Positions 26,443 through 45,984 of a stretch of DNA of 46,111 nt are shown in pieces. Location: positions 1-46,111 of the forward strand of contig JAAXWQ010000012.1 in the NCBI GenBank assembly GCA_013335115.1, in the 5' to 3' direction. The DNA is from Chlorobiaceae bacterium (GTDB taxonomy: Bacteria > Bacteroidota > Chlorobiia > Chlorobiales > Chlorobiaceae). Within the stretch, counting starts at the first letter, position 1. Each line of letters starts with the position of its first letter. A program made the position numbers and the translations under genes. A model generated the notes under the pieces. The model was not told the origin of the DNA, made no database searches, and saw only the letters and a list, made by a program, of their open reading frames with translations.

Positions 26443-26705
26443 AACAACTTAAACCGCAGTCTAAAATTCGGGGTCCACTCTCCAGAAGCCCTCAGTCAAT
26501 AAACAAAGGCAAGCCCTTGCGTGTATCCCCGTAATCGGTCACCTCAAAAGTGGAAATTCTGGCGTCACGGAGGTGTGCTAATATTGTTACCGCTATCCAT
26601 AAATGCGCGGTATGTAGCCGAAACGACAAAACCCGTTGCTTTCAATCCCAAACAGCCCCGCGTCGCCCCAGACACGGTATCAACCAACGCTGGGCCCGAC
26701 CCATT
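26443..26705 (+). repeat. Degenerate precursor-repeat remnant (unit A)
   Basis: This is the left part of the 393-bp gap between thiE and the autotransporter gene. GGCGTCACGGAGGTGTG (26561-26577) repeats the sequence that follows the RT gene at 44154-44170 and recurs near intact precursor genes. Together with the degenerate precursor next to it, it marks the leftmost copy of the repeated unit. The remaining bases show nothing recognisable. Confidence 0.5.
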
Positions 26706-26827
26706 GATCCCGTCCACTGAGCAGTCGTATCCTGCTTCATGATGGTTTCCAGCCAGCCCTCCGGTGTTTCTATCGCCATAACCTGCTCGCAGTACGCCGG
26801 GTACGGCTTCATCCTCTCAATGAATCC
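26706..26827 (-). pseudogene. Degenerate Nif11-type precursor gene
   Basis: Read leftward, the frame gives GFIERMKPYPAYCEQVMAI and then ETPEGWLETIMKQDTTA. This aligns along its length with the intact leaders (AFIEKMKTDEAFREKIMAI, ETPEERLKAI). The MSVEQAKA start is missing: the sequence runs straight into the stop codon of the autotransporter gene, 8 bp away and in another frame. The GG cleavage site and a core cannot be seen. It is a decayed copy, apparently cut at its 5' end where the autotransporter gene abuts. Confidence 0.7.
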
Positions 26828-26835
26828 ATTACGGG

Positions 26836-28914
26836 CTACAACTTCACATCAATGCCGGCAAGCACCGTATGCTGCTTGCCATTCTGCTGGATTCTGCCTT
26901 GGTAGCCGAGGAAGCCAGAGGCCACGCGACCGATCTTAGCGTAGTTCAGCCGCCCACCGAAGTTGAATACGTCGCGGCCGATCATGGTGGTGGAACCTTG
27001 AATCATGCGGCCCAGTAGCGTGACCTGGGTGGAGTGGTCACGGTCGCCGAGCAACAACGAATAGCCTAGGTCCATGGAGAGCCACAGCGTCCCGTACGGT
27101 TTAACCAGGGGCACCGATTTCCAGCGGAAACCGACGCCAGGCTCGAACTGGTTCAGCATACTTTGCGATACCTTCAGGTTGAAAATCCGGGCCTCTGATT
27201 CATCGAATGCATCGGTTTTCTGCCAGCGGCAGCTCAGCGAAGCGTAGGGGGCGATACTCCAGCCGCTCTCATGCGTGTACTTCCGTATCACGTTCAACGC
27301 CATCTCAATGCCTTGCGACTTATAGTCGCTTTGCCCTACCGGCAGTCTGGCGGTACCAGCGGTACCGGCGATCTCATGCCGCGACAGCGTCTGACCCATC
27401 CATGCAAACTGCCCACTTCCTTCCAGCAACCAGTCTTCCCATGATCTAGAACCGAAGATACCCAAATGCATCGAATCGGCCAGACCGTTGTCTGCTGAGG
27501 TGGTGGTGTTCAGGTCGGTGCGAGATAGGCCTGCGGCGAGGCCGAACTGTGCGGTGTTCTGGTTGACCAGGTCAATACCGAACCAAGCGCCGGTGGTAAC
27601 AGCGTGGGCGGGTTGGGAAGCTGATCCCAAATCGAGCGAGGCATCGCCGTAGATCGGCACAACCCAAACCGCCGCAGCCTTCGTGGCTGAGATATTCGCG
27701 CCTCCCTGGCCTTGGCCACCCAACAGCGTGATGGCCGGATCCGATGCGGCATTGCCAGGGACGGACGACGCCGTCGCCAGATGTTGGCGAAGCCCCTTTC
27801 CCATATGGTCCATGGTGACGAAGCGCGACCATGTGGCGTTGGCGAACGACCCGGCAGTACGGGGTTCGATGGTAGCGACGATATTGCCAAGGTTCAGCAG
27901 GCCCCAGCCGTAAACCGGGTCCACGCCAGGTTCACCAAGGTCAGTCGCGGTCTGGAGCACCATCTGCACCACTTCAGGGCTGGTAGCCTTCGGGAAAATC
28001 TCGTAGGTCACCGCGACGGTGCCCGTGACATGCGGAGTGGCCATCGAAGTGCCACTCTGACTCCCGTATTGATTACTTTGCATTGATGACCATATCGCAG
28101 TATCGGATCCATTGTTTCCAATTCCGCCCGGTGCTGATATACTCCATTCCGCCCCAACTCCAGCTTTGTTGGAATACCATGTTATTTTCCTGTCAGGTCC
28201 TACGGCCACAACGGCAATCCAATAGGGTTGAAGTTCGGGAAAGTAATAGGGCAAACCGGCGGGTAATGCCGGTTGTGACTGGGAACTGTTGCCTGCGCCC
28301 AACACGAGTACGCTTCCTGATGCCGTGGTGTTGCGATAAGCTTGCAACATGCCAGGATATTGGCTTTGAAACATCTCGGCGGTTAAGCCATCAAAGAACT
28401 CACCGAGTATCCAGGAATTATTGAACACCTGGACCCCATTGCTGAGGCCAAATGCATAACTGGAGGCAGTGTTTGCATCGAATATGTGATAGTCGACATT
28501 GCCATTTGCATCAATTGCTCCGGAAATAACATTGATTCCCACCATCCCGCTCTTTGTCGCCACACCGACGTTTTTCCCTACTGCAATACCGGCCACATGG
28601 GTACTGTGGTAGTCGGTGTTGCCCGGCTCATAAGGTGTTCCGTAGCTGTTGTAGGTCGCGATGACCCTATCGCTGAATTCCGGATGGTTGACATAGATGA
28701 TATCGTCGACTACCCCCACGACGATCCCATTGCCTGTAAACCCGGCCTCAACAGCGCGATCATGGCCAATCATGCGGAGGCCCCAGAGTTGCTCGGGAGT
28801 TGGCGCAGTTGTTGTGAGCGGAATATCTGTGGCGAGGGCACTGAATGCAATCATGGTGAGGGCGAATCCGCTGAACACAATCCTCAACACCAGACGGAAG
28901 AAATGCTTTGACAT
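26836..28914 (-). CDS. Subtilase (S8) autotransporter serine protease
   Basis: A 692-residue protein: signal peptide (residues about 8-28, cleavage near ALA-TD), then an S8 protease domain with Asp70 (VVGVVDD), His103 (YHSTHVAGIAVG), the oxyanion Asn209 (GAGN) and catalytic Ser290 (SGTSMATPHVTG). A C-terminal region from about residue 430 has the alternating pattern of an autotransporter beta-barrel and ends AGIDVKL rather than in the usual aromatic residue. It should be exported across the outer membrane and act outside or at the cell surface. It is last in the leftward RiPP gene row, so it might process or destroy peptides, but this is inference. Codon use looks less GC-rich than the housekeeping genes to the left, suggesting transfer. 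Confidence 0.88.
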   Translation of the reverse strand: MSKHFFRLVLRIVFSGFALTMIAFSALATDIPLTTTAPTPEQLWGLRMIGHDRAVEAGFTGNGIVVGVVDDIIYVNHPEFSDRVIATYNSYGTPYEPGNTDYHSTHVAGIAVGKNVGVATKSGMVGINVISGAIDANGNVDYHIFDANTASSYAFGLSNGVQVFNNSWILGEFFDGLTAEMFQSQYPGMLQAYRNTTASGSVLVLGAGNSSQSQPALPAGLPYYFPELQPYWIAVVAVGPDRKITWYSNKAGVGAEWSISAPGGIGNNGSDTAIWSSMQSNQYGSQSGTSMATPHVTGTVAVTYEIFPKATSPEVVQMVLQTATDLGEPGVDPVYGWGLLNLGNIVATIEPRTAGSFANATWSRFVTMDHMGKGLRQHLATASSVPGNAASDPAITLLGGQGQGGANISATKAAAVWVVPIYGDASLDLGSASQPAHAVTTGAWFGIDLVNQNTAQFGLAAGLSRTDLNTTTSADNGLADSMHLGIFGSRSWEDWLLEGSGQFAWMGQTLSRHEIAGTAGTARLPVGQSDYKSQGIEMALNVIRKYTHESGWSIAPYASLSCRWQKTDAFDESEARIFNLKVSQSMLNQFEPGVGFRWKSVPLVKPYGTLWLSMDLGYSLLLGDRDHSTQVTLLGRMIQGSTTMIGRDVFNFGGRLNYAKIGRVASGFLGYQGRIQQNGKQHTVLAGIDVKL

Positions 28915-29317
28915 CTAATATGGCTGAATGGTAATAATTATCATACACCGAGCATAATACTTAAATACTGCTGTATTGAGGCCATGCAATGACTGGCTCT
29001 TGATAATTAATTACATACTTATGAGTCGCTTTCTGTTCTCTTGGTTGTGGTGAAGTCGTGACCGAGCGGATTGTCATGTGCTGTTAGGTTTGATGGGTAC
29101 GCAATTTATCGGCAGGAATAAGTCACAACGAGTTTTGAAAAACAATCACCGTATTTCTTGGTATTGGCACTTCATCAATCGATAGCATCGCTGACAGGAG
29201 AAACGGCTGGTAACACAGAAAGGCGGCATCAGGTACTGTGGGCATCAGAGAGCAAGTCTGGCTGAGCTAACGCCCCAAACATGGACGTCACGGCGATGTG
29301 TTCTACCCCTCAACATC
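28915..29317 (+). repeat. Intergenic region with repeated RT-tail-type element (unit B)
   Basis: This 403-bp gap lies between the first precursor gene and the autotransporter. The AT-rich end (28918-28985) should hold the autotransporter promoter. From TTCTTGGTATTGGC (29155) onward it resembles unit C (from about 31632), and later has GCAAGTCTGGCTGAG, CGCCCCAAACATGGACGTCACGG (about 29270-29293) matching the hairpin region behind the RT gene. No RT codons are recognisable in this copy. Confidence 0.55.
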
Positions 29318-29545
29318 TTAGTGGTATCGTACGACATCCTTGCACGGACATAGACTACGCCCCCCGCCCGCCGCTGAACCAACCGCAGCGCCCGCCTCGT
29401 TAATTTCCTCTCCGGTGCATTCAAATCCTGCTTTTTCGATAGCTTTCAGCCGCTCCTCAGGCGTTTCGGTCGCCATGATCTGCTCGCGGAACGCCTCATC
29501 CGTCTTCATCTTCTCGATGAACGCCTTTGCCTGTTCTACTGACAT
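29318..29545 (-). CDS. Nif11-type RiPP precursor peptide 1
   Basis: A 75-residue precursor. The leader begins MSVEQAKAFIEKMKTDEAFR and contains ETPEERLKAIEKAGFECTGEEINEA, the Nif11-like leader pattern. The leader ends AAGGG (to residue 62), a double-glycine type site for the C39 protease encoded in the cluster. The core is RSLCPCKDVVRYH, with two Cys that could carry thioether or disulfide links. A ribosome binding site (AAGGA, in CCTTGGGG-side complement) lies before the ATG. It sits between the SbmA-like transporter and the autotransporter. Confidence 0.88.
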   Translation of the reverse strand: MSVEQAKAFIEKMKTDEAFREQIMATETPEERLKAIEKAGFECTGEEINEAGAAVGSAAGGGRSLCPCKDVVRYH

Positions 29546-31631: not shown

Positions 31632-31790
31632 ATTCTTGGTATTGGCTCTTCATCAGCCGATAGCATCGATGGCTGTATGGATAAGATGGGAATCACGAAA
31701 GGCGGTTTATGACCGTTCCGGTATCGCACAGGCAAGTCTGGCAGAGAATACGCCCCATGGATGGGGGTTACCGAGGGGTGGTCAGAAAAT
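31632..31790 (+). repeat. Repeated structured element (unit C) beside precursor 2
   Basis: The first part matches unit B (CTTGGTATTGGC, TCATCA..CGATAGCATCG). The second part matches the sequence after the RT gene: GGCGGTTTATGACCG...CCGGTATCGCACAGG, then CCCC (31753-31756) ATGGAT GGGG (31763-31766) and GTTACCGAGG. RT codons are not recognisable. The hairpin lies 35-50 bp beyond the stop codon of precursor 2, antisense to it. Confidence 0.6.
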
Positions 31791-31800
31791 CAACATTGCC

Positions 31801-32022
31801 CTAGGCAAGTCGTCCACACCATCTTCCGTGGGGCTTGCCCCCTCCCACCACCTGGCGTACGTCCTCAGCGGCATCATTTATCTCTTCGCCAGTGCACTCG
31901 AATCCCGCTTCTCCGATTGCTTTCAGCCGTTCCTCCGGCGTTTCGATTGCCATGATCTTTTCACGGAACGCTTCATCCGTCTTCATCTTCTCGATGAACG
32001 CTTTTGCGTGTTCTACTGACAT
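31801..32022 (-). CDS. Nif11-type RiPP precursor peptide 2
   Basis: A 73-residue precursor with the leader MSVEHAKAFIEKMKTDEAFR... and FECTGEEINDA; the fifth residue is His where the other copies have Gln. The leader ends VVGGG at residue 62. The core is short: KPHGRWCGRLA, with a single Cys. AAGGAG lies ahead of the ATG. Immediately upstream (on its 5' side) is the RT-tail remnant of the next unit. Confidence 0.85.
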   Translation of the reverse strand: MSVEHAKAFIEKMKTDEAFREKIMAIETPEERLKAIGEAGFECTGEEINDAAEDVRQVVGGGKPHGRWCGRLA

Positions 32023-32060
32023 GAGGAATCTCCTTGGGGTTGATTAATTGAGTAACGCGA

Positions 32061-32117
32061 TACTGGGTCTATGTCCTGAAACACCTCCACATTTCGGGAG
32101 CCACGGTTCGAGCTTGA
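32061..32117 (+). pseudogene. RT gene 3'-end fragment (18 codons plus stop)
   Basis: The frame reads YWVYVLKHLHISGATVRA and stop. This matches the last residues of the reverse transcriptase encoded at 43209-44084 (YWVYVLKHLHISGATVRT), with mostly silent base changes. No other part of the gene is here, so the copy is truncated from the 5' side. It directly follows the 5' region of precursor 2. Confidence 0.85.
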
Positions 32118-32205
32118 TACCGAAACGGTTTACGACCACTCCGACACACGGCAAGTCGGGCAGAGAATCCACCCCTGGAACGGGGAGTTCTAGAGGTATT
32201 ATCAA
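32118..32205 (+). repeat. Repeated structured element (unit D) beside precursor 3
   Basis: After the RT stop the sequence TACCGAAACGGTTTACGACC...GGCAAGTCGGGCAGAGAAT aligns with that behind the full RT gene. The CCCC (32172-32175) TGGAAC GGGG (32182-32185) hairpin is kept although its loop has changed. It ends just before precursor 3's stop codon. Confidence 0.65.
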
Positions 32206-32219
32206 CAGGCCAAGGTCAT

Positions 32220-32459
32220 TTACGAAATAGATGGCATGAAGCGAACACTAGCCCCCATACCGTTCATCATAAATGCCCCTGCAGTCACGTCCGTGGTCAC
32301 CTCAGTGATTTCGTTAATTTCTTCTCCGGTGCACTCGAATCCTGCTGCTCCGATGGCTTTCAACCGCTCCTCCGGCGTTTCAATCGCCATGATCTTTTCA
32401 AAGAATGCTTCATCCGTTTTCATCCTCTCGATGAACGCTTTTGCCTGTTCTACTGACAT
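32220..32459 (-). CDS. Nif11-type RiPP precursor peptide 3
   Basis: A 79-residue precursor, leader MSVEQAKAFIERMKTDEAFF with FECTGEEINE. Unlike the others it lacks Gly-Gly and ends its leader in TAG (Ala60-Gly61). The probable core AFMMNGMGASVRFMPSIS has no Cys and is rich in Met. ATG 32459 is chosen because AGGAAGG lies just upstream; the frame is open 14 codons further. It is the first precursor after the acetyltransferase gene and likely shares the export operon transcript. Confidence 0.87.
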   Translation of the reverse strand: MSVEQAKAFIERMKTDEAFFEKIMAIETPEERLKAIGAAGFECTGEEINEITEVTTDVTAGAFMMNGMGASVRFMPSIS

Positions 32460-32546
32460 GGAGCCTTCCTGGCTTTGGATTGTATTGATCTTGGAATACA
32501 CACAAAACTACTGCACCAATATCTTGGGAAAGAAAACCCGCCTTGA

Positions 32547-41753: not shown

Positions 41754-43205
41754 ATGAAAACCTGGTCACGCTACAATACCCTGTTTCGTTCAGAACGCTA
41801 CGGCTGGTTCCTGCACAACACGCTCAACGGCATGATGCTCGAACTCGACGAGCCCCACCGTAAGATTGCCAAATCTTTCCGCGACGGAAATCCTGATTTT
41901 GACGTCGATTCCGATGCCGAATTCATCGCCCTGCTCGAAGAGCACGGATTCCTTGCTGAACCGGCTGACGAACGGCTCAAGCTCATGATCCTGCGCTATC
42001 AGCGCAACGCTGCCTGCTTCAGCACGGGCTTCGTCGGCCTGACCATCTGCCCGACGCTCGCCTGCAACTTCGCCTGCCCCTACTGCTTCGAGCACAGCCA
42101 AGCGGATGCGACCGTGATGGACAACGGGACGATTGAGGCGCTTGTCGCGTTCATCAAAAAGCACCACGAAGCCAAACAGCTCTCGGTCAGTTGGTACGGT
42201 GGCGAACCCACGCTCGCGTTCAGCGTCATCGAGACCCTCACCGAAAAGTTCATCAAGCTGTTTCCCGACTACGCCGACGCCGGTATCGTCACCAACGGCT
42301 ACCTGCTCGATCAAAAGAAAATCGACCGGCTCGACGATCTCCGGATCACCTCCATCCAGATCACGCTCGACGGCAGCGAAAAGACCCACAACCAGCGCCG
42401 CACGCTCAGAAACGGCGGAGCGACCTATGAGCAGATCCTTCGGAACATCGACATTCTCATGGGTTCGTCATGGAAGGGGCAATGCGCCATCCGCGTCAAT
42501 GTCGACAAGACCAACCGCCATGAATACGCCGCGCTACACAAGGAACTCCTCGACCGATACAAAGGCAAAAACCTCTCCGTCTATCCCGGCCATGTGAACA
42601 CCTTCGAGGGGCATGAATACGACCAGCAGTGCGGCCTCTGCAACAGCGACTGGAGCACCTTCCAGTTCGACGGGTACACGAAGGATGGCATCACCCCTCG
42701 CGGCGGCTTCTTCCCCGGCAGCGGCGCCCAGAACATCTGCATCGCCACCAGCCATCAGGGCTATGTGGTCGGACCAAAAGGCGAACTCTACAAATGCTGG
42801 GAGGATGTCGGCAAACAGGATATGGTCATCGGCTCGGTGCATGAGGAGCCGTTCCTCACCAGCCCCGAGCTTCTCACCCGCTACACCATCGGCACCGACC
42901 CCCACAGCGACAGCGAGTGCCTGGAGTGCAAGGTGTTCCCGGTCTGCGGAGGCGGATGCGTCAACAAGCGGATGCGGGTGCAGCAGTTCGGCGAAGGCGG
43001 CCTCGACTACTGTTCCCCGCTGAATGAATCCCTGGAGCAGTACCTTGACCTGTACATGGATGTCTGGCACACCAACCAGATCTGCAGTGCCGTGCTCGGC
43101 AAGGGCAGCGCCCCGTCGATGGAGAAGGGCTACCGCATGATGCAGCCGGAGAAGAAAGCGGAAGCGGCGAAGAACCCGCTTGAAAGCCTGACAACACAGG
43201 AGTAG
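41754..43205 (+). CDS. Radical SAM/SPASM peptide maturase
   Basis: A 483-residue enzyme. The N-terminal 80 residues (WSRYNTLFRSERYGWFLHN) may bind the leader. The radical SAM motif is Cys104-x3-Cys108-x2-Cys111 (CNFACPYC), with WYGGEPTL and TNGYLLD following. Extra Cys293, 296, 329 and 348 precede a SPASM domain with Cys389-x2-Cys392-x5-Cys398-x3-Cys402 and Cys420. SPASM proteins of this kind make thioether or carbon-carbon links in RiPPs. Divergent from the exporter and followed after 3 bp by the RT gene. Its substrates are presumably the Nif11-type precursors. Confidence 0.92.
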   Translation: MKTWSRYNTLFRSERYGWFLHNTLNGMMLELDEPHRKIAKSFRDGNPDFDVDSDAEFIALLEEHGFLAEPADERLKLMILRYQRNAACFSTGFVGLTICPTLACNFACPYCFEHSQADATVMDNGTIEALVAFIKKHHEAKQLSVSWYGGEPTLAFSVIETLTEKFIKLFPDYADAGIVTNGYLLDQKKIDRLDDLRITSIQITLDGSEKTHNQRRTLRNGGATYEQILRNIDILMGSSWKGQCAIRVNVDKTNRHEYAALHKELLDRYKGKNLSVYPGHVNTFEGHEYDQQCGLCNSDWSTFQFDGYTKDGITPRGGFFPGSGAQNICIATSHQGYVVGPKGELYKCWEDVGKQDMVIGSVHEEPFLTSPELLTRYTIGTDPHSDSECLECKVFPVCGGGCVNKRMRVQQFGEGGLDYCSPLNESLEQYLDLYMDVWHTNQICSAVLGKGSAPSMEKGYRMMQPEKKAEAAKNPLESLTTQE

Positions 43206-43208
43206 ACG

Positions 43209-44084
43209 GTGCTGCCGGTGCTGGCGCTCCGGAACCTCTGGCGTAAGGATGGCCATCGGTTCGCCCGATGGTCTGCCCGAAGCGGGAGACTGCTGCGAAA
43301 CGCCAAACAGCCCCTCCTGCGGACCCTGCAACCGGCACTTTGCCGCACCTGCATGCATGTCAAAGGCAGCGGAGGCGTCAAACGGGCGGTGCGGATCGTC
43401 AGGCTGCAAGCCAGACACTACCCATGGGCGGTAAAGTTCGATATCGCATCCTATTACAAGTCCATCGACCACCATGTACTTCTTGACCTGTTGACCGCTA
43501 CAGGTACGAGCCCGCACATGCAGGCACTTGTTGCCGACTACCTGCAACTGCCCGACAAAAGCAAGAGTGGCAAAGGCATGGTGGCCGGCGGGGCCATCAG
43601 CCCGCTCCTCGGGGCCCTCTACCTCTACCCGCTCGACAAGGCCATGGAGCAGCCAGAAAAGAAGGGGCGCATCCTCTACCGGCGGTTCATGGACGACTTC
43701 ATCATCCTTGCCAAGTCACGCCATACCTTCAAAAGCGCCATCCGGACAGTCCACCGTGTGCTCGCCGACCTCAAACTGACCCTGCACCCGGTAAAGCGGT
43801 TCATCGGCAGAACTGAAAAAGGCTTTGACTTCCTCGGTTACCAGATTCACCCCGACCGCAAACTCTGCCCCTCGGCAACGAGCCTGCACCGCCTCACGGA
43901 ACGCGCACGCCGGCTTTACGAGCAAGGAGCCTCGATCAAGAGGCTCCGGCAGTACGTCACCCGTTGGCACCGCTGGCTCCTTGGCGGTTTGGACGAACTG
44001 GTAACCACCAAAGGCGGCGTCACCAAATACTGGGTCTATGTCCTGAAACACCTCCACATCTCAGGAGCCACTGTACGAACCTGA
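43209..44084 (+). CDS. Short reverse transcriptase of unassigned group
   Basis: A 291-residue RT. GTG start at 43209 with AGGAG (43198-43202) six bases upstream, 3 bp after the radical SAM stop, so probably translationally coupled. Palm motif A is VKFDIASYYKSIDH (Asp78); the QG-like block reads GGAISPLLGALYLYPLD (128-143); the catalytic box is FMDD (160-163), where most RTs have YADD or YVDD. FIGRTEKGFDFLGYQI and RRLYEQGASIKRLRQYVTRWHRWLLGGL belong to the thumb. The fingers are short: only 75 residues precede motif A. GSGGVKRAVR is a group-specific feature. No intron maturase or endonuclease domain is present. It may act on the structured RNA behind it. Diversity-generating, retron and group II RTs are related but do not match fully. 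Confidence 0.85.
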   Translation: MLPVLALRNLWRKDGHRFARWSARSGRLLRNAKQPLLRTLQPALCRTCMHVKGSGGVKRAVRIVRLQARHYPWAVKFDIASYYKSIDHHVLLDLLTATGTSPHMQALVADYLQLPDKSKSGKGMVAGGAISPLLGALYLYPLDKAMEQPEKKGRILYRRFMDDFIILAKSRHTFKSAIRTVHRVLADLKLTLHPVKRFIGRTEKGFDFLGYQIHPDRKLCPSATSLHRLTERARRLYEQGASIKRLRQYVTRWHRWLLGGLDELVTTKGGVTKYWVYVLKHLHISGATVRT

Positions 44085-44172
44085 TGCCGGAGCGGTTTAT
44101 GATCGCTCCGGCATCGCACAGGTAAGGCTGGCGGAAAAAATCGCCCAAGCATGGGCGTCACGGAGGTGTGGT
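44085..44172 (+). ncRNA. Structured element directly behind RT gene (unit F)
   Basis: Right after the RT stop TGCCGGAGCG (44085-44094) pairs perfectly with CGCTCCGGCA (44104-44113) around a 9-nt loop. A second hairpin is GCCC (44143-44146) AAGCAT GGGC (44153-44156), then GTCACGGAGGTGTGGTC. The same element occurs in several copies, and the second stem shows a compensatory change in unit G. It ends at the 3' side of precursor 4 and could be an RT template or recognition RNA, or a bidirectional terminator. Confidence 0.5.
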
Positions 44173-44179
44173 CTGAAGA

Positions 44180-44407
44180 TCAACACTGACTGGTAACACT
44201 CCAAAAGTACCATCGCCCACCAACGGCCACCGCGCACTCATGGACGTCAGACGAGGCATCATTTAATTCTGAAGCGCTGCACTCGAATCCCGCTTCTACG
44301 ATGGCTTTCAGCCGCTCCTCCGGCGTTTCAATAGCCATGATCTTTTCACGGAACGCTTCATCCGTCTTCATCTTCTCGATGAATGCTTTTGCCTGTTCTA
44401 CTGACAT
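44180..44407 (-). CDS. Nif11-type RiPP precursor peptide 4
   Basis: A 75-residue precursor. Leader MSVEQAKAFIEKMKTDEAFR, then KIMAIETPEERLKAIVEAG, FECSASELND, ending AVGG at residue 64. Core RWYFWSVTSQC: aromatic, with a C-terminal Cys. It lies between the RT gene and a near-identical truncated RT copy. Its leader DNA is identical to that of precursor 5 over about 108 bases while the core is different. Confidence 0.87.
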   Translation of the reverse strand: MSVEQAKAFIEKMKTDEAFREKIMAIETPEERLKAIVEAGFECSASELNDASSDVHECAVAVGGRWYFWSVTSQC

Positions 44408-44524
44408 GGTGAGGGTCTCCCTTATCTAACGTTATATGGAATTGGAATATCACTTGGGTACTACGTTGAAATGTATCACGGGCAGAGGGGTAAACAAAAG
44501 AGAAAAGCCCGAAAGGGCGGGGGG

Positions 44525-44830
44525 ACCCTGCACCCAGTGAAGCGCTTCATCGGCAGAACTGAAAAAGGCTTTGACTTCCTCGGTTACCAGATTCACCCCG
44601 ACCGCAAACTCTGCCCCTCGGCAACGAGCCTGCACCGCCTCACGGAACGCGCACGCCGGCTTTACGAGCAAGGAGCCTCGATCAAGAGGCTCCGGCAGTA
44701 CGTCACCCGTTGGCACCGCTGGCTCCTTGGCGGTTTGGACGAACTGGTAACCACCAAAGGCGGCGTCACCAGATACTGGGTTTATGTCCTGAAGCACCTC
44801 CACATCTCAGGAGCCACCGTACGAACCTGA
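44525..44830 (+). pseudogene. 5'-truncated second copy of RT gene
   Basis: From ACCCTGCACCC (44525) to the stop at 44830 this is a near-identical copy of RT codons 191 to the end (FIGRTEKGFDFLGYQ... to SGATVRT), with only a handful of base differences, one changing Lys to Arg. Everything upstream, including the catalytic FMDD, is missing; the joined sequence (44471-44524) is unrelated and holds a GCCC-GAAA-GGGC tetraloop hairpin. It cannot be active as an RT. Confidence 0.9.
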
Positions 44831-44922
44831 TGCCGGAGCGGTTTATGATCGCTCCGGCATCGCGTAGGTAAGACGGGCGGAGAAGATGCCCCAAGGATGG
44901 GGGTTACCGAGGTGTGGTCAGG
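44831..44922 (+). ncRNA. Structured element behind truncated RT copy (unit G)
   Basis: TGCCGGAGCG (44831-44840) and CGCTCCGGCA (44850-44859) repeat the first hairpin exactly. The second hairpin is CCCC (44889-44892) AAGGAT GGGG (44899-44902), a C:G for G:C exchange at the outer pair relative to unit F. Then GTTACCGAGGTGTGGTCAG, and the antisense precursor 5. Confidence 0.55.
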
Positions 44923-45162
44923 CTACCTACAGTAGGAAATATATAAACCTAAACGCAAACCCGCACCCATTAACCCCCACCCCCCTGCCGACTCTCCGAC
45001 ATCCGCCGCCGCCTCGTTAATTTCCACTCCGTTGCAAGGGAATCCTGCTGCACCGATGGCTTTCAGCCGCTCCTCCGGCGTTTCAATAGCCATGATCTTT
45101 TCACGGAACGCTTCATCCGTCTTCATCTTCTCGATGAATGCTTTTGCCTGTTCTACTGACAT
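44923..45162 (-). CDS. Nif11-type RiPP precursor peptide 5
   Basis: A 79-residue precursor. Leader as in copy 4 to residue 36, then GAAG-FPCNGVEINEAAADV and the cleavage site SAGG at residue 61. Core WGLMGAGLRLGLYISYCR: Gly/Leu-rich with one Cys. AAGGAAGG precedes the ATG. It belongs to unit G, which otherwise nearly duplicates unit F. Confidence 0.87.
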   Translation of the reverse strand: MSVEQAKAFIEKMKTDEAFREKIMAIETPEERLKAIGAAGFPCNGVEINEAAADVGESAGGWGLMGAGLRLGLYISYCR

Positions 45163-45229
45163 GGGGGCCTTCCTTTGGTTGAATAACTAAAATTCTCAAA
45201 CTATTAAAGCGCAACTACTGACAAACATC

Positions 45230-45345
45230 CACATCTCCGGAGCTACGGTACGAACCTAATACCGAAGTGGTTTATAATCGCTCCCGTACCGCACATTCTA
45301 CCACGAAACCATGACTCTCTCATGGGCGATACCGGAGGTACGGGT
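45230..45345 (+). repeat. Short RT 3'-end fragment and diverged element (unit H)
   Basis: HISGATVRT and a TAA stop (45230-45259) repeat the last nine RT codons. The following ACCGAAGTGGTTTATAATCG...CGTACCGCAC and CATGGGCGATACCGGAGGTACGG align with the element behind the RT gene, but the first stem is no longer perfect. It lies before a core remnant. Confidence 0.65.
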
Positions 45346-45349
45346 GATG

Positions 45350-45479
45350 TCAATACATTGACGGATGTCCGGGATCGACCCACCGATAATGCTTCCATCC
45401 CGCACCAACGACCCCGAATTCTGCGCCAAAACTGGCCACCTCATTGATTTCCTCGGCCGTGCATGAGAACCCTTCATTC
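45350..45479 (-). pseudogene. Nif11-type precursor remnant lacking leader
   Basis: Read leftward the frame gives NEGFSCTAEEINEVASFGAE, then FGVVGAGWKHYRWVDPGHPSMY and stop. GFSCTAEEINE aligns with GFECTGEEINE of the intact copies. The N-terminal 38 residues are gone; a stop codon lies about 20 codons upstream and precursor 6 follows. So a leaderless core remains, apparently left behind by recombination. Confidence 0.65.
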
Positions 45480-45517
45480 TGGTAGCAGGCTGTTCGTCCC
45501 ACTTCAGCGAGGTGAGC

Positions 45518-45787
45518 TCAACAGTGACTGCCATTACATGGAAATAGGTGGTCATTCCCGCCCCAGCTCCCCATATACTTACTGCCATAACCAACGAAGT
45601 GTCCCCCTGATGCGTCTTCAACGCGAGCCGCACCCGCCTCATTGACTTCATCTGCGCTGCAGTCATATCCTGCTTCTTTGATGGCTTTCAGCCGCTCCTC
45701 CGGTGTTTCGATTGCCATGATCTTTTCGCGGAACGCTTCGTCCGTCTTCATCTTCTCGATGAACGCTTTTGCCTGCTCTACTGACAT
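45518..45787 (-). CDS. Nif11-type RiPP precursor peptide 6
   Basis: An 89-residue precursor, the longest. Leader MSVEQAKAFIEKMKTDEAFR to KEAGYDCSADEVNEAGAARV, cleavage site DASGG at residue 62. The 27-residue core starts HFVGYGSKYMGSWGG and ends FPCNGSHC; Gly- and aromatic-rich with two Cys near the end. Strong purine-rich ribosome binding site (AAGGAAGGGG) before the ATG. Confidence 0.87.
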   Translation of the reverse strand: MSVEQAKAFIEKMKTDEAFREKIMAIETPEERLKAIKEAGYDCSADEVNEAGAARVEDASGGHFVGYGSKYMGSWGGNDHLFPCNGSHC

Positions 45788-45827
45788 GGGGGCCCCTTCC
45801 TTTTATTTTGATTGATTGAGTGATGCA

Positions 45828-45965
45828 GATACCGGGGCTAAGTCCCGAATCACATCCACATCATGGCGCCATGGTTCAAACCTGATATAGGATCGATTGC
45901 TGGCCACACTGACATAGCTCGATACGAGTGGCGTTGAATGATCCCCGATTCACGGGAGGAGGGTG
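45828..45965 (+). repeat. Diverged RT-tail element (unit I)
   Basis: GATACCGGGGCTAAGTCC and CACATCCACATCATGGCGCC then GGTTCAAACCTGATA align with the RT tail and its stop (TACTGGGTCTATGTCC, CACCTCCACATCTCAGGAGCC, CGAACCTGATGCC). As in unit D, the RT part begins about 15 bases after TGATTGAG of the preceding precursor's 5' region. Part of the 324-bp gap to the window end; no precursor follows before the possible insertion sequence end. Confidence 0.55.
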
Positions 45966-45984
45966 TCACTATAAATCAACACCC

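What the first reader, a model, noticed from the sequence alone, without database searches (positions are those of the whole stretch)
43209..45965. RT gene with a family of 5'-truncated copies, each tied to a RiPP precursor
The RT gene (43209-44084) is followed by a hairpin element and an antisense Nif11-type precursor. The same order recurs with RT parts of 102 codons (44525-44830), 18 codons (32061-32117) and 9 codons (45230-45259), and a weak copy (45828-45885). All share the RT 3' end and differ at the 5' end. Progressive 5' truncation with a fixed 3' end is typical of copies made by target-primed reverse transcription. Such an RT-linked amplification of peptide precursors is, to my knowledge, not described. 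Ordinary tandem duplication with deletion is the main alternative.
Basis: partly seen in the sequence, partly recalled or inferred. Interest (0 to 1): 0.88.

Follow-up and report, generated by a model that had tools for sequence, protein, structure and literature searches.

The report
RT-bordered hypervariable peptide gene cassettes
In green sulfur bacteria, small peptide-precursor genes sit tail-to-tail with the last part of a little-studied reverse transcriptase gene, and the stretch between the peptide's constant leader and that RT end is swapped wholesale between copies; related RTs elsewhere also lie beside genes for exported products, which suggests, but does not prove, that this RT class helps diversify its neighbours.

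Summary
A UG4-class RT (43209-44084) and 5'-shortened copies of its 3' end each lie tail-to-tail with a Nif11 RiPP precursor. The pattern recurs widely: a conserved ~100-nt element after the RT stop has 60 copies in 14 of 86 Chlorobiaceae genomes, 44 with a convergent Nif11 gene close by. Of the RT-derived segments, 28 keep only the 3' part and 1 only the 5' part.

Target-primed retrocopying is not supported. The window's main truncation junctions are shared with other species, RT 3' ends are homogenised within genomes by gene conversion, junctions abut the next precursor's 5' UTR, and no target-site duplication could be shown.

What stands out is that the RT end borders a hypervariable cassette: near-identical leaders and elements flank unrelated cores. 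Other UG4 RTs, some reduced to 3' stubs, abut genes for NHLP precursors, PEP-CTERM proteins, an inverse autotransporter, unrelated adhesin-like proteins in fimbrial operons, and eCIS-linked proteins.

Best explanation: recombination swaps cores between two arms, the 5'UTR/leader and the RT 3' end/element; whether the RT drives it is open. I found no description of this in the papers searched.

The parts
41754..43205 (+). radical SAM/SPASM RiPP maturase directly upstream of the RT
   Evidence: Radical_SAM 1e-17; NCBIfam RiPP maturase models, best rSAM_Clo7bot 2e-64, below its equivalog cutoff
43209..44084 (+). UG4-class reverse transcriptase, FMDD catalytic motif; lacks the ~55-60 N-terminal residues of other UG4 RTs
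   Evidence: PADLOC RT_UG4 8.7e-65, model positions 56-305 of 307; alignment A3
44074..44190 (+). conserved element after the RT stop: hairpin 1 (44083-44115) plus hairpin 2; on the precursor strand hairpin 2 plus T-run is terminator-like (44157-44142)
   Evidence: 60 family-wide copies; covariation of hairpin 1; terminator scan
44180..44407 (-). Nif11 precursor n1
   Evidence: TIGR03798 1.7e-22
44188..44300 (-). variable stretch of n1 between the copied RT/element side and the copied leader
   Evidence: alignment of units a and b
44524..44830 (+). RT 3' fragment (residues 191-291); junction shared with G013 and G024
44820..44936 (+). element copy, identical over more than 100 nt to the G013 copy L049:3089-3205
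44923..45162 (-). Nif11 precursor n2; first 109 nt identical to n1, core different
   Evidence: TIGR03798 2.6e-22
44934..45054 (-). variable stretch of n2
45218..45259 (+). RT 3' fragment (from nt 835); junction shared with G013
45249..45362 (+). element copy
   Evidence: model R1 hit, E 4e-9
45350..45508 (-). decapitated old precursor (leader tail plus core, no start); intact orthologue in G013 L049:4457-4696
45518..45787 (-). Nif11 precursor n3, no element directly at its own 3' end
   Evidence: TIGR03798 1.1e-23
45826..45982 (+). weak RT 3' end plus element copy
   Evidence: blastn 65%, E 2e-9
32052..32220 (+). RT 3' fragment (residues 271-291) plus element; junction shared with G013
32220..32501 (-). 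Nif11 precursor n5
   Evidence: TIGR03798 4e-22
31801..32022 (-). Nif11 precursor n4
   Evidence: TIGR03798 3e-23
29318..29545 (-). Nif11 precursor paired with the 29.2-kb remnant
   Evidence: TIGR03798 5e-23

Best explanation
This is an array of hypervariable RiPP-precursor cassettes whose downstream border is the 3' end of a UG4 reverse transcriptase gene. SHOWN: each complete cassette is 5'UTR - constant Nif11 leader - core - stop, followed in antisense by the element (a terminator-like hairpin on the precursor strand plus a conserved hairpin) and an RT 3' fragment of varying length. The sequence between leader and element is exchanged wholesale between copies and species, including non-coding bases after early stop codons, while both flanks stay nearly identical. 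RT 3' ends are homogenised within genomes. Truncation junctions are inherited. INFERRED: cassettes duplicated together with the RT end. RT bodies then eroded from the 5' side, while the end next to the precursor was kept as terminator and as a homology arm. Homologous recombination and gene conversion between the arms (5'UTR/leader on one side, RT 3' end/element on the other) shuffle cores within and between genomes. The RT's own enzymatic contribution is open. That UG4 RTs recur beside other exported-product genes makes a role in diversification plausible.
For: 44 of 60 elements have a convergent Nif11 gene in the next 400 nt, leader end usually 14-105 nt away. Element end within -42 to +40 nt of the precursor stop, apart from one unit at 166 nt. 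Window units a/b: long 100% stretches in the RT part, 109 nt of leader identical, core and 5'UTR dissimilar. n2 vs G013: element side 100% over >100 nt, leader near-identical, core scrambled. G062/G085/G055: unrelated sequence of about 30-120 nt between near-identical leaders and near-identical elements. G024: two units identical over ~270 nt of 5'UTR plus leader, then different cores. One RT570|5'UTR junction is followed by four different precursors in three genomes. Own RT vs own truncated copy 97.9%, same-junction relatives 91-92.5%. In G024 a divergent RT carries a 100%-identical ~250-nt tract from the other RT. RT dS between window and G024 is 0.10 against 0.40 for rSAM and about 1.0-2.2 for most other cluster genes; the last 400 nt of rSAM are about 96% identical, so this border has been exchanged between species.
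Against: Homologous recombination does not explain why a UG4 RT, rather than any other gene, marks the border in several phyla. No donor for any given core was found, so the exchange is inferred from flanks. In n2/G013 the two ends of the core remain similar, which looks more like local scrambling than whole-cassette replacement. RT fragments start mostly at residues 186-226, not spread evenly as random deletion would give; part of this is the detection limit.
Confidence: 0.55

Rival explanations
1. RT-driven cassette exchange. The UG4 RT makes cDNA from RNA that spans its own 3' end/element and the adjacent gene. The cDNA recombines into homologous sites and replaces the variable stretch, bringing a variable length of RT sequence with it. 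It would work like mutagenic retrohoming of DGRs but exchange whole cassettes.
For: UG4 RTs in several phyla abut genes for exported products: NHLP precursors (L069 Desulfobacteraceae; L159 and the G024 chimera), PEP-CTERM proteins (L092, L102, L093), an annotated inverse autotransporter (L146), unrelated adhesin-like ORFs in fimbrial operons (L149, L205-L214), an eCIS_core protein and a further variable ORF (L084). RT 3' end retention 28 vs 1. A conserved hairpin after the RT stop. Genomes with the element have a median of 7 Nif11 genes against 2.
Against: Only four of the 14 element-bearing genomes show a full-length RT; nine have fragments only, yet their arrays persist. The Chlorobi RT lacks about 55 N-terminal residues of UG4. 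No template RNA identified. The converted tract in the G024 chimera does not reach the RT 3' end. Differences between copies are not confined to one base.
Confidence: 0.25
2. Passive linkage. The element is simply the precursor's terminator that happens to overlap the RT 3' end. RT copies are decaying by-products of tandem duplication, and cores differ because of diversifying selection and horizontal transfer.
For: Hairpin 2 followed by T-rich sequence on the precursor strand in many copies, 11 of 27 with at least 5 T in 7. Nif11 arrays without RT exist. Shared old junctions.
Against: Flanks 97-100% identical around unrelated cores exceed what selection on a diverging gene gives. Non-coding bases between early stop codons and the element are exchanged too. 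The same RT class recurs beside unrelated exported-product genes.
Confidence: 0.12
3. One reading: 5'-truncated retrotransposition by target-primed reverse transcription of an RNA ending at a fixed 3' end, each copy landing at a precursor.
For: 28 3'-only against 1 5'-only segment; many different truncation points; starts skewed to the last ~100 codons.
Against: Junctions shared between species, gene conversion, cores differ between copies sharing both flanks, no target-site duplication could be shown. The occupied site at the hydrolase (G024, G025; G028 lacks the element) looks like a piece of a precursor array, with a Nif11 start on its far side.
Confidence: 0.08

Closest known systems
Diversity-generating retroelements (DGRs)
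   Same: RT next to genes for variable, often exported proteins; variability confined to a segment beside a constant downstream sequence
   Different: RT is UG4, not DGR. No template repeat found. Changes include indels, transitions and whole-cassette replacement, not adenine-specific substitution. Whole segments are exchanged.
UG4 reverse transcriptases (unknown function; 66% next to fimbrial genes, PMC8934634)
   Same: The RT here is UG4 by the PADLOC model; the fimbrial association is seen again in Enterobacteria
   Different: Not described in the papers read: RT 3' end as border of variable genes, 5'-truncated stubs beside adhesin-like ORFs and RiPP precursors, links to Nif11/NHLP, PEP-CTERM and eCIS proteins. 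A 2014 survey placed UG4 in Proteobacteria only (PMC4244168).
Nif11/NHLP natural combinatorial RiPP precursor families (PMC2887384; prochlorosins)
   Same: Constant leader, hypervariable core, many precursors per maturase
   Different: The mechanism of core variation is not addressed there (no mention of reverse transcriptase); here cores lie between two conserved arms, one of them RT-derived
5'-truncated non-LTR (LINE-type) retrocopies
   Same: Fixed 3' end, variable 5' ends
   Different: Inherited junctions, tandem order, gene conversion, no demonstrable target-site duplications
Integron gene-cassette arrays (from memory)
   Same: Head-to-tail small ORF cassettes each with a 3' hairpin element, enzyme gene at the array edge in the opposite orientation
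   Different: No integrase; the element overlaps the enzyme's own 3' end; exchange appears homology-based. Functional analogy only.

Membership tests
UG4 reverse transcriptase | best match to the UG4 RT profile | tested here: met
   8.7e-65 against 9.3e-32 for the next model; relatives 1e-49 to 1e-131
UG4 reverse transcriptase | full-length UG4 domain and catalytic YxDD/FxDD | tested here: inconclusive
   FMDD present, but model positions 1-55 are absent in the Chlorobi RTs
UG4 reverse transcriptase | neighbouring fimbrial genes (reported 66%; an association, not a strict definition) | tested here: not met
   Not in Chlorobi, where the neighbours are RiPP genes; met in Enterobacteria, Aeromonas and Burkholderia loci
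Diversity-generating retroelement | DGR-class RT | tested here: not met
   RT_UG4 is the best model by more than 30 orders of magnitude
Diversity-generating retroelement | template repeat / variable repeat pair with adenine-specific differences | tested here: not met
   No such pair among the repeats found; differences include indels and are not base-specific by inspection
Target-primed (LINE-like) retrotransposon | common 3' end, variable 5' truncation | tested here: met
   28 3'-only against 1 5'-only
Target-primed (LINE-like) retrotransposon | independent insertion sites with target-site duplication and empty sites | tested here: not met
   Window junctions shared between species; the one occupied/empty comparison shows an array piece, not a clean insertion
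Nif11-leader RiPP precursor | TIGR03798 leader above cutoff | tested here: met
   all window precursors scanned, 78-83 bits against cutoff 32.3
Group II intron | intron RNA domains V/VI and intron-type maturase | tested here: not met
   no Rfam match in the window; group II maturase model 97 bits against cutoff 300

The most novel reading that the evidence does not exclude
UG4 reverse transcriptases are a distinct class of diversification machine: their RNA 3' end/element is a cis-acting border, and the RT drives, through cDNA, replacement of whole variable segments in the adjacent exported-product gene (RiPP core, tip adhesin, PEP-CTERM or eCIS-linked protein), independent of adenine mutagenesis.
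Probability: 0.27. Interest if true: 0.93.

Novelty: new variant of a known kind. Interest (0 to 1): 0.7.

Why it matters
UG4 RTs have had no proposed function beyond 'next to fimbriae'. A shared anatomy (RT 3' end abutting the gene of an exported product, with RT bodies often lost but the 3' stub kept) in RiPP clusters, fimbrial operons and eCIS-linked loci gives the class a testable role. It also offers a handle on how bacteria replace peptide cores or adhesins while keeping leaders, ushers and maturases constant. If the RT drives the exchange, it would be a non-DGR route to targeted gene diversification and a possible tool for making peptide libraries.

Tried and rejected
Rfam search of the window: nothing at gathering score. 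RNAalifold on the 27-copy element alignment gave almost no consensus structure; naming hairpin 1 by hand gave modest covariation (84.6% paired, 4 pairs with two-sided changes, mostly above shuffles and slid controls). DGR reading rejected (no template/variable pair, no base-specific changes). Group II intron reading rejected. Empty-site test at the hydrolase (L041/L059 against G028): not a clean insertion. Core composition: G-rich (GC skew 0.37 against 0.29 in leaders), not striking. I first took the L044 neighbour for an inverse autotransporter, but no family model matched, so it is only 'an exported-looking protein'. Literature: no paper found linking UG4 or any RT to RiPP precursors; the library lacks most subscription journals.
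Full report
CHECK OF THE OBSERVATION. Self-comparison gives the copies at 44524, 32060, 45218 and 45826 with E-values from 6e-147 to 2e-9. Two further units (31633-31800 and 29155-29315) were missed. The constant end of the copies lies about 95 nt beyond the RT stop, at the precursor stop codon. The RT is a UG4-class enzyme (PADLOC RT_UG4 8.7e-65, next model 9.3e-32). The Chlorobi members lack about 55 N-terminal model positions. All copies in the genome lie in this one RiPP locus.

HOW GENERAL IT IS. In 86 Chlorobiaceae genomes, 37 RT-derived segments of this type were merged from the search table: 5 full-length, 28 with only the 3' part, 1 with only the 5' part, 3 internal (binomial p 1e-7). 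The N-terminus is less conserved, so 5' pieces are somewhat harder to find, and some segments share an inherited junction, so they are not all independent. The element after the RT stop (model R1) has 60 copies in 14 genomes. 44 of them have a convergent Nif11 gene in the next 400 nt. Several others lie at contig ends, beside NHLP precursors, or beside a hydrolase. Genomes with the element carry a median of 7 Nif11 genes, the others 2 (Mann-Whitney p 3e-7, not corrected for relatedness). But G042, G076 and G035 have arrays without RT or element of this type, so the RT is not required for an array.

WHY THESE ARE NOT SIMPLE RETROCOPIES. The junctions at RT nt 570, 811-819 and 835-840 recur in G013, and 570 also in G024. 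They are therefore inherited. Despite this, the window RT and its 570 copy are 97.9% identical while same-junction copies in the relatives are 91-92.5% identical to the window copy. In G024 a second RT with a 70%-identical 5' half carries a tract of about 250 nt that is 100% identical to the first RT. Both mean gene conversion. In tandem units the truncated RT end is followed, on the precursor strand, by the 5'UTR of the next precursor. The only occupied/empty comparison, downstream of a hydrolase, shows a piece of a precursor array (element, RT stub, start of a Nif11 gene) rather than an insertion with duplications. The 5'-truncation pattern can equally come from erosion of duplicated RT genes whose 3' end is protected by the adjacent precursor.

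THE HYPERVARIABLE CASSETTE. The striking fact is at the fixed end. Window units a and b are 100% identical over most of the RT part and over 109 nt of the leader, but dissimilar in the core and upstream of the start codon. n2 and its G013 counterpart are 100% identical for more than 100 nt on the element side and nearly so in the leader, with a scrambled core of about 60 nt. In G062, G085 and G055, near-identical leaders and near-identical elements enclose unrelated sequence of about 30-120 nt. In G062b the exchanged stretch continues past an early stop codon up to the element. In G024 two units are identical for about 270 nt of 5'UTR and leader and then carry different cores. The same RT570|5'UTR junction precedes four different precursors in three genomes. 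In the window itself an old precursor (45350-45508, intact in G013) has lost its start to a newer one, n3. The rSAM 3' end and RT are far less diverged from G024 (RT dS 0.10) than most other cluster genes (dS about 1 to 2; rSAM 0.40, GNAT 0.41), so this border has been exchanged between species.

WHAT THE ELEMENT MAY DO. On the precursor strand, hairpin 2 lies just after the stop codon and is followed by T-rich sequence (at least 5 T in 7 in 11 of 27 copies). It is a plausible terminator. Hairpin 1 shows modest covariation. This gives the element a simple reason to be kept, and it can serve as a homology arm at the same time.

OTHER UG4 RTs. More distant UG4 RTs also sit against genes for exported products. 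A Desulfobacteraceae RT is convergent with an NHLP precursor (72.7 bits, cutoff 50.9); the G024 chimeric RT and a G072 RT fragment are convergent with NHLP precursors too. Myxococcota and Paraglaciecola RTs or RT fragments are convergent with PEP-CTERM proteins. A Salmonella plasmid RT is convergent with an annotated inverse autotransporter. In Marinomonas and Oceanospirillum loci the RT follows short ORFs, one an eCIS_core protein, and precedes ORFs sharing a constant N-terminus. In enterobacterial fimbrial operons RT stubs with the same 3' end (RT nt 364-818, 445-827, 589-835, 763-838, 529-809) or full RTs stand directly upstream of adhesin-like ORFs that share no significant BLASTP similarity between loci, while the RT parts are 67-98% identical; homology between full-length loci stops at the RT C-terminus. 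The exception pair, L149/L211, shares 97.8% in the RT and the first 11 adhesin codons, then drops to about 65%. RT 3' ends are also repeated in tandem in Marinomonas and Thiotrichales loci. That these ORFs are tip adhesins is inferred from operon position; no family model named them.

JUDGEMENT. Shown: the units, their generality, inherited junctions, gene conversion, and cores exchanged between constant flanks with the RT end as border. Inferred: homologous recombination between the two arms as the immediate process (0.55). Possible: direct action of the RT through cDNA (0.25). The published record found gives UG4 no function, only a 66% association with fimbrial genes (PMC8934634) and a restriction to Proteobacteria in 2014 (PMC4244168); no paper on RT and RiPP precursors was found, in a library without most subscription journals.

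Noticed in passing
L039:17605-18455 (G024): Mosaic RT: 5' half only ~70% identical to the other RT in that genome, then ~250 nt 100% identical, convergent with an NHLP precursor at L039:17108-17500.
   Followed up: partly
L205-L214, L149 (enterobacterial plasmids and chromosomes): UG4 RT or 5'-truncated RT stub between the minor-subunit genes and an unrelated adhesin-like ORF in PefC/FedE-type and other fimbrial operons.
   Followed up: partly
L083:7328-8317, L084:7271-8104: ORFs downstream of UG4 RTs share a constant N-terminus (..KPxENKS..FVDNR..) and differ afterwards; an eCIS_core gene lies just upstream of the RT in L084.
   Followed up: partly
L075:6605-7924, L076:6646-7135: RT 3'-end segments repeated in tandem downstream of the RT (66-91% identity).
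   Followed up: no
window 42800-44180: rSAM 3' end plus RT is far less diverged from G024 (other genus group) than most of the cluster: RT dS 0.10 against ~1-2. A recent cross-species exchange tract.
   Followed up: partly
L044:4103-4282 (Chlorobium sp. N1): The only clear 5'-end-only RT fragment, 89% identical to the start of the full RT 2.5 kb downstream.
   Followed up: no
window 26642-26839: A further weak Nif11-like ORF on the minus strand without element.
   Followed up: no
G042, G076, G035 (L198-L201): Nif11 arrays with another leader/core style (..SGG-CCGHTCE..) and no RT or element.
   Followed up: partly
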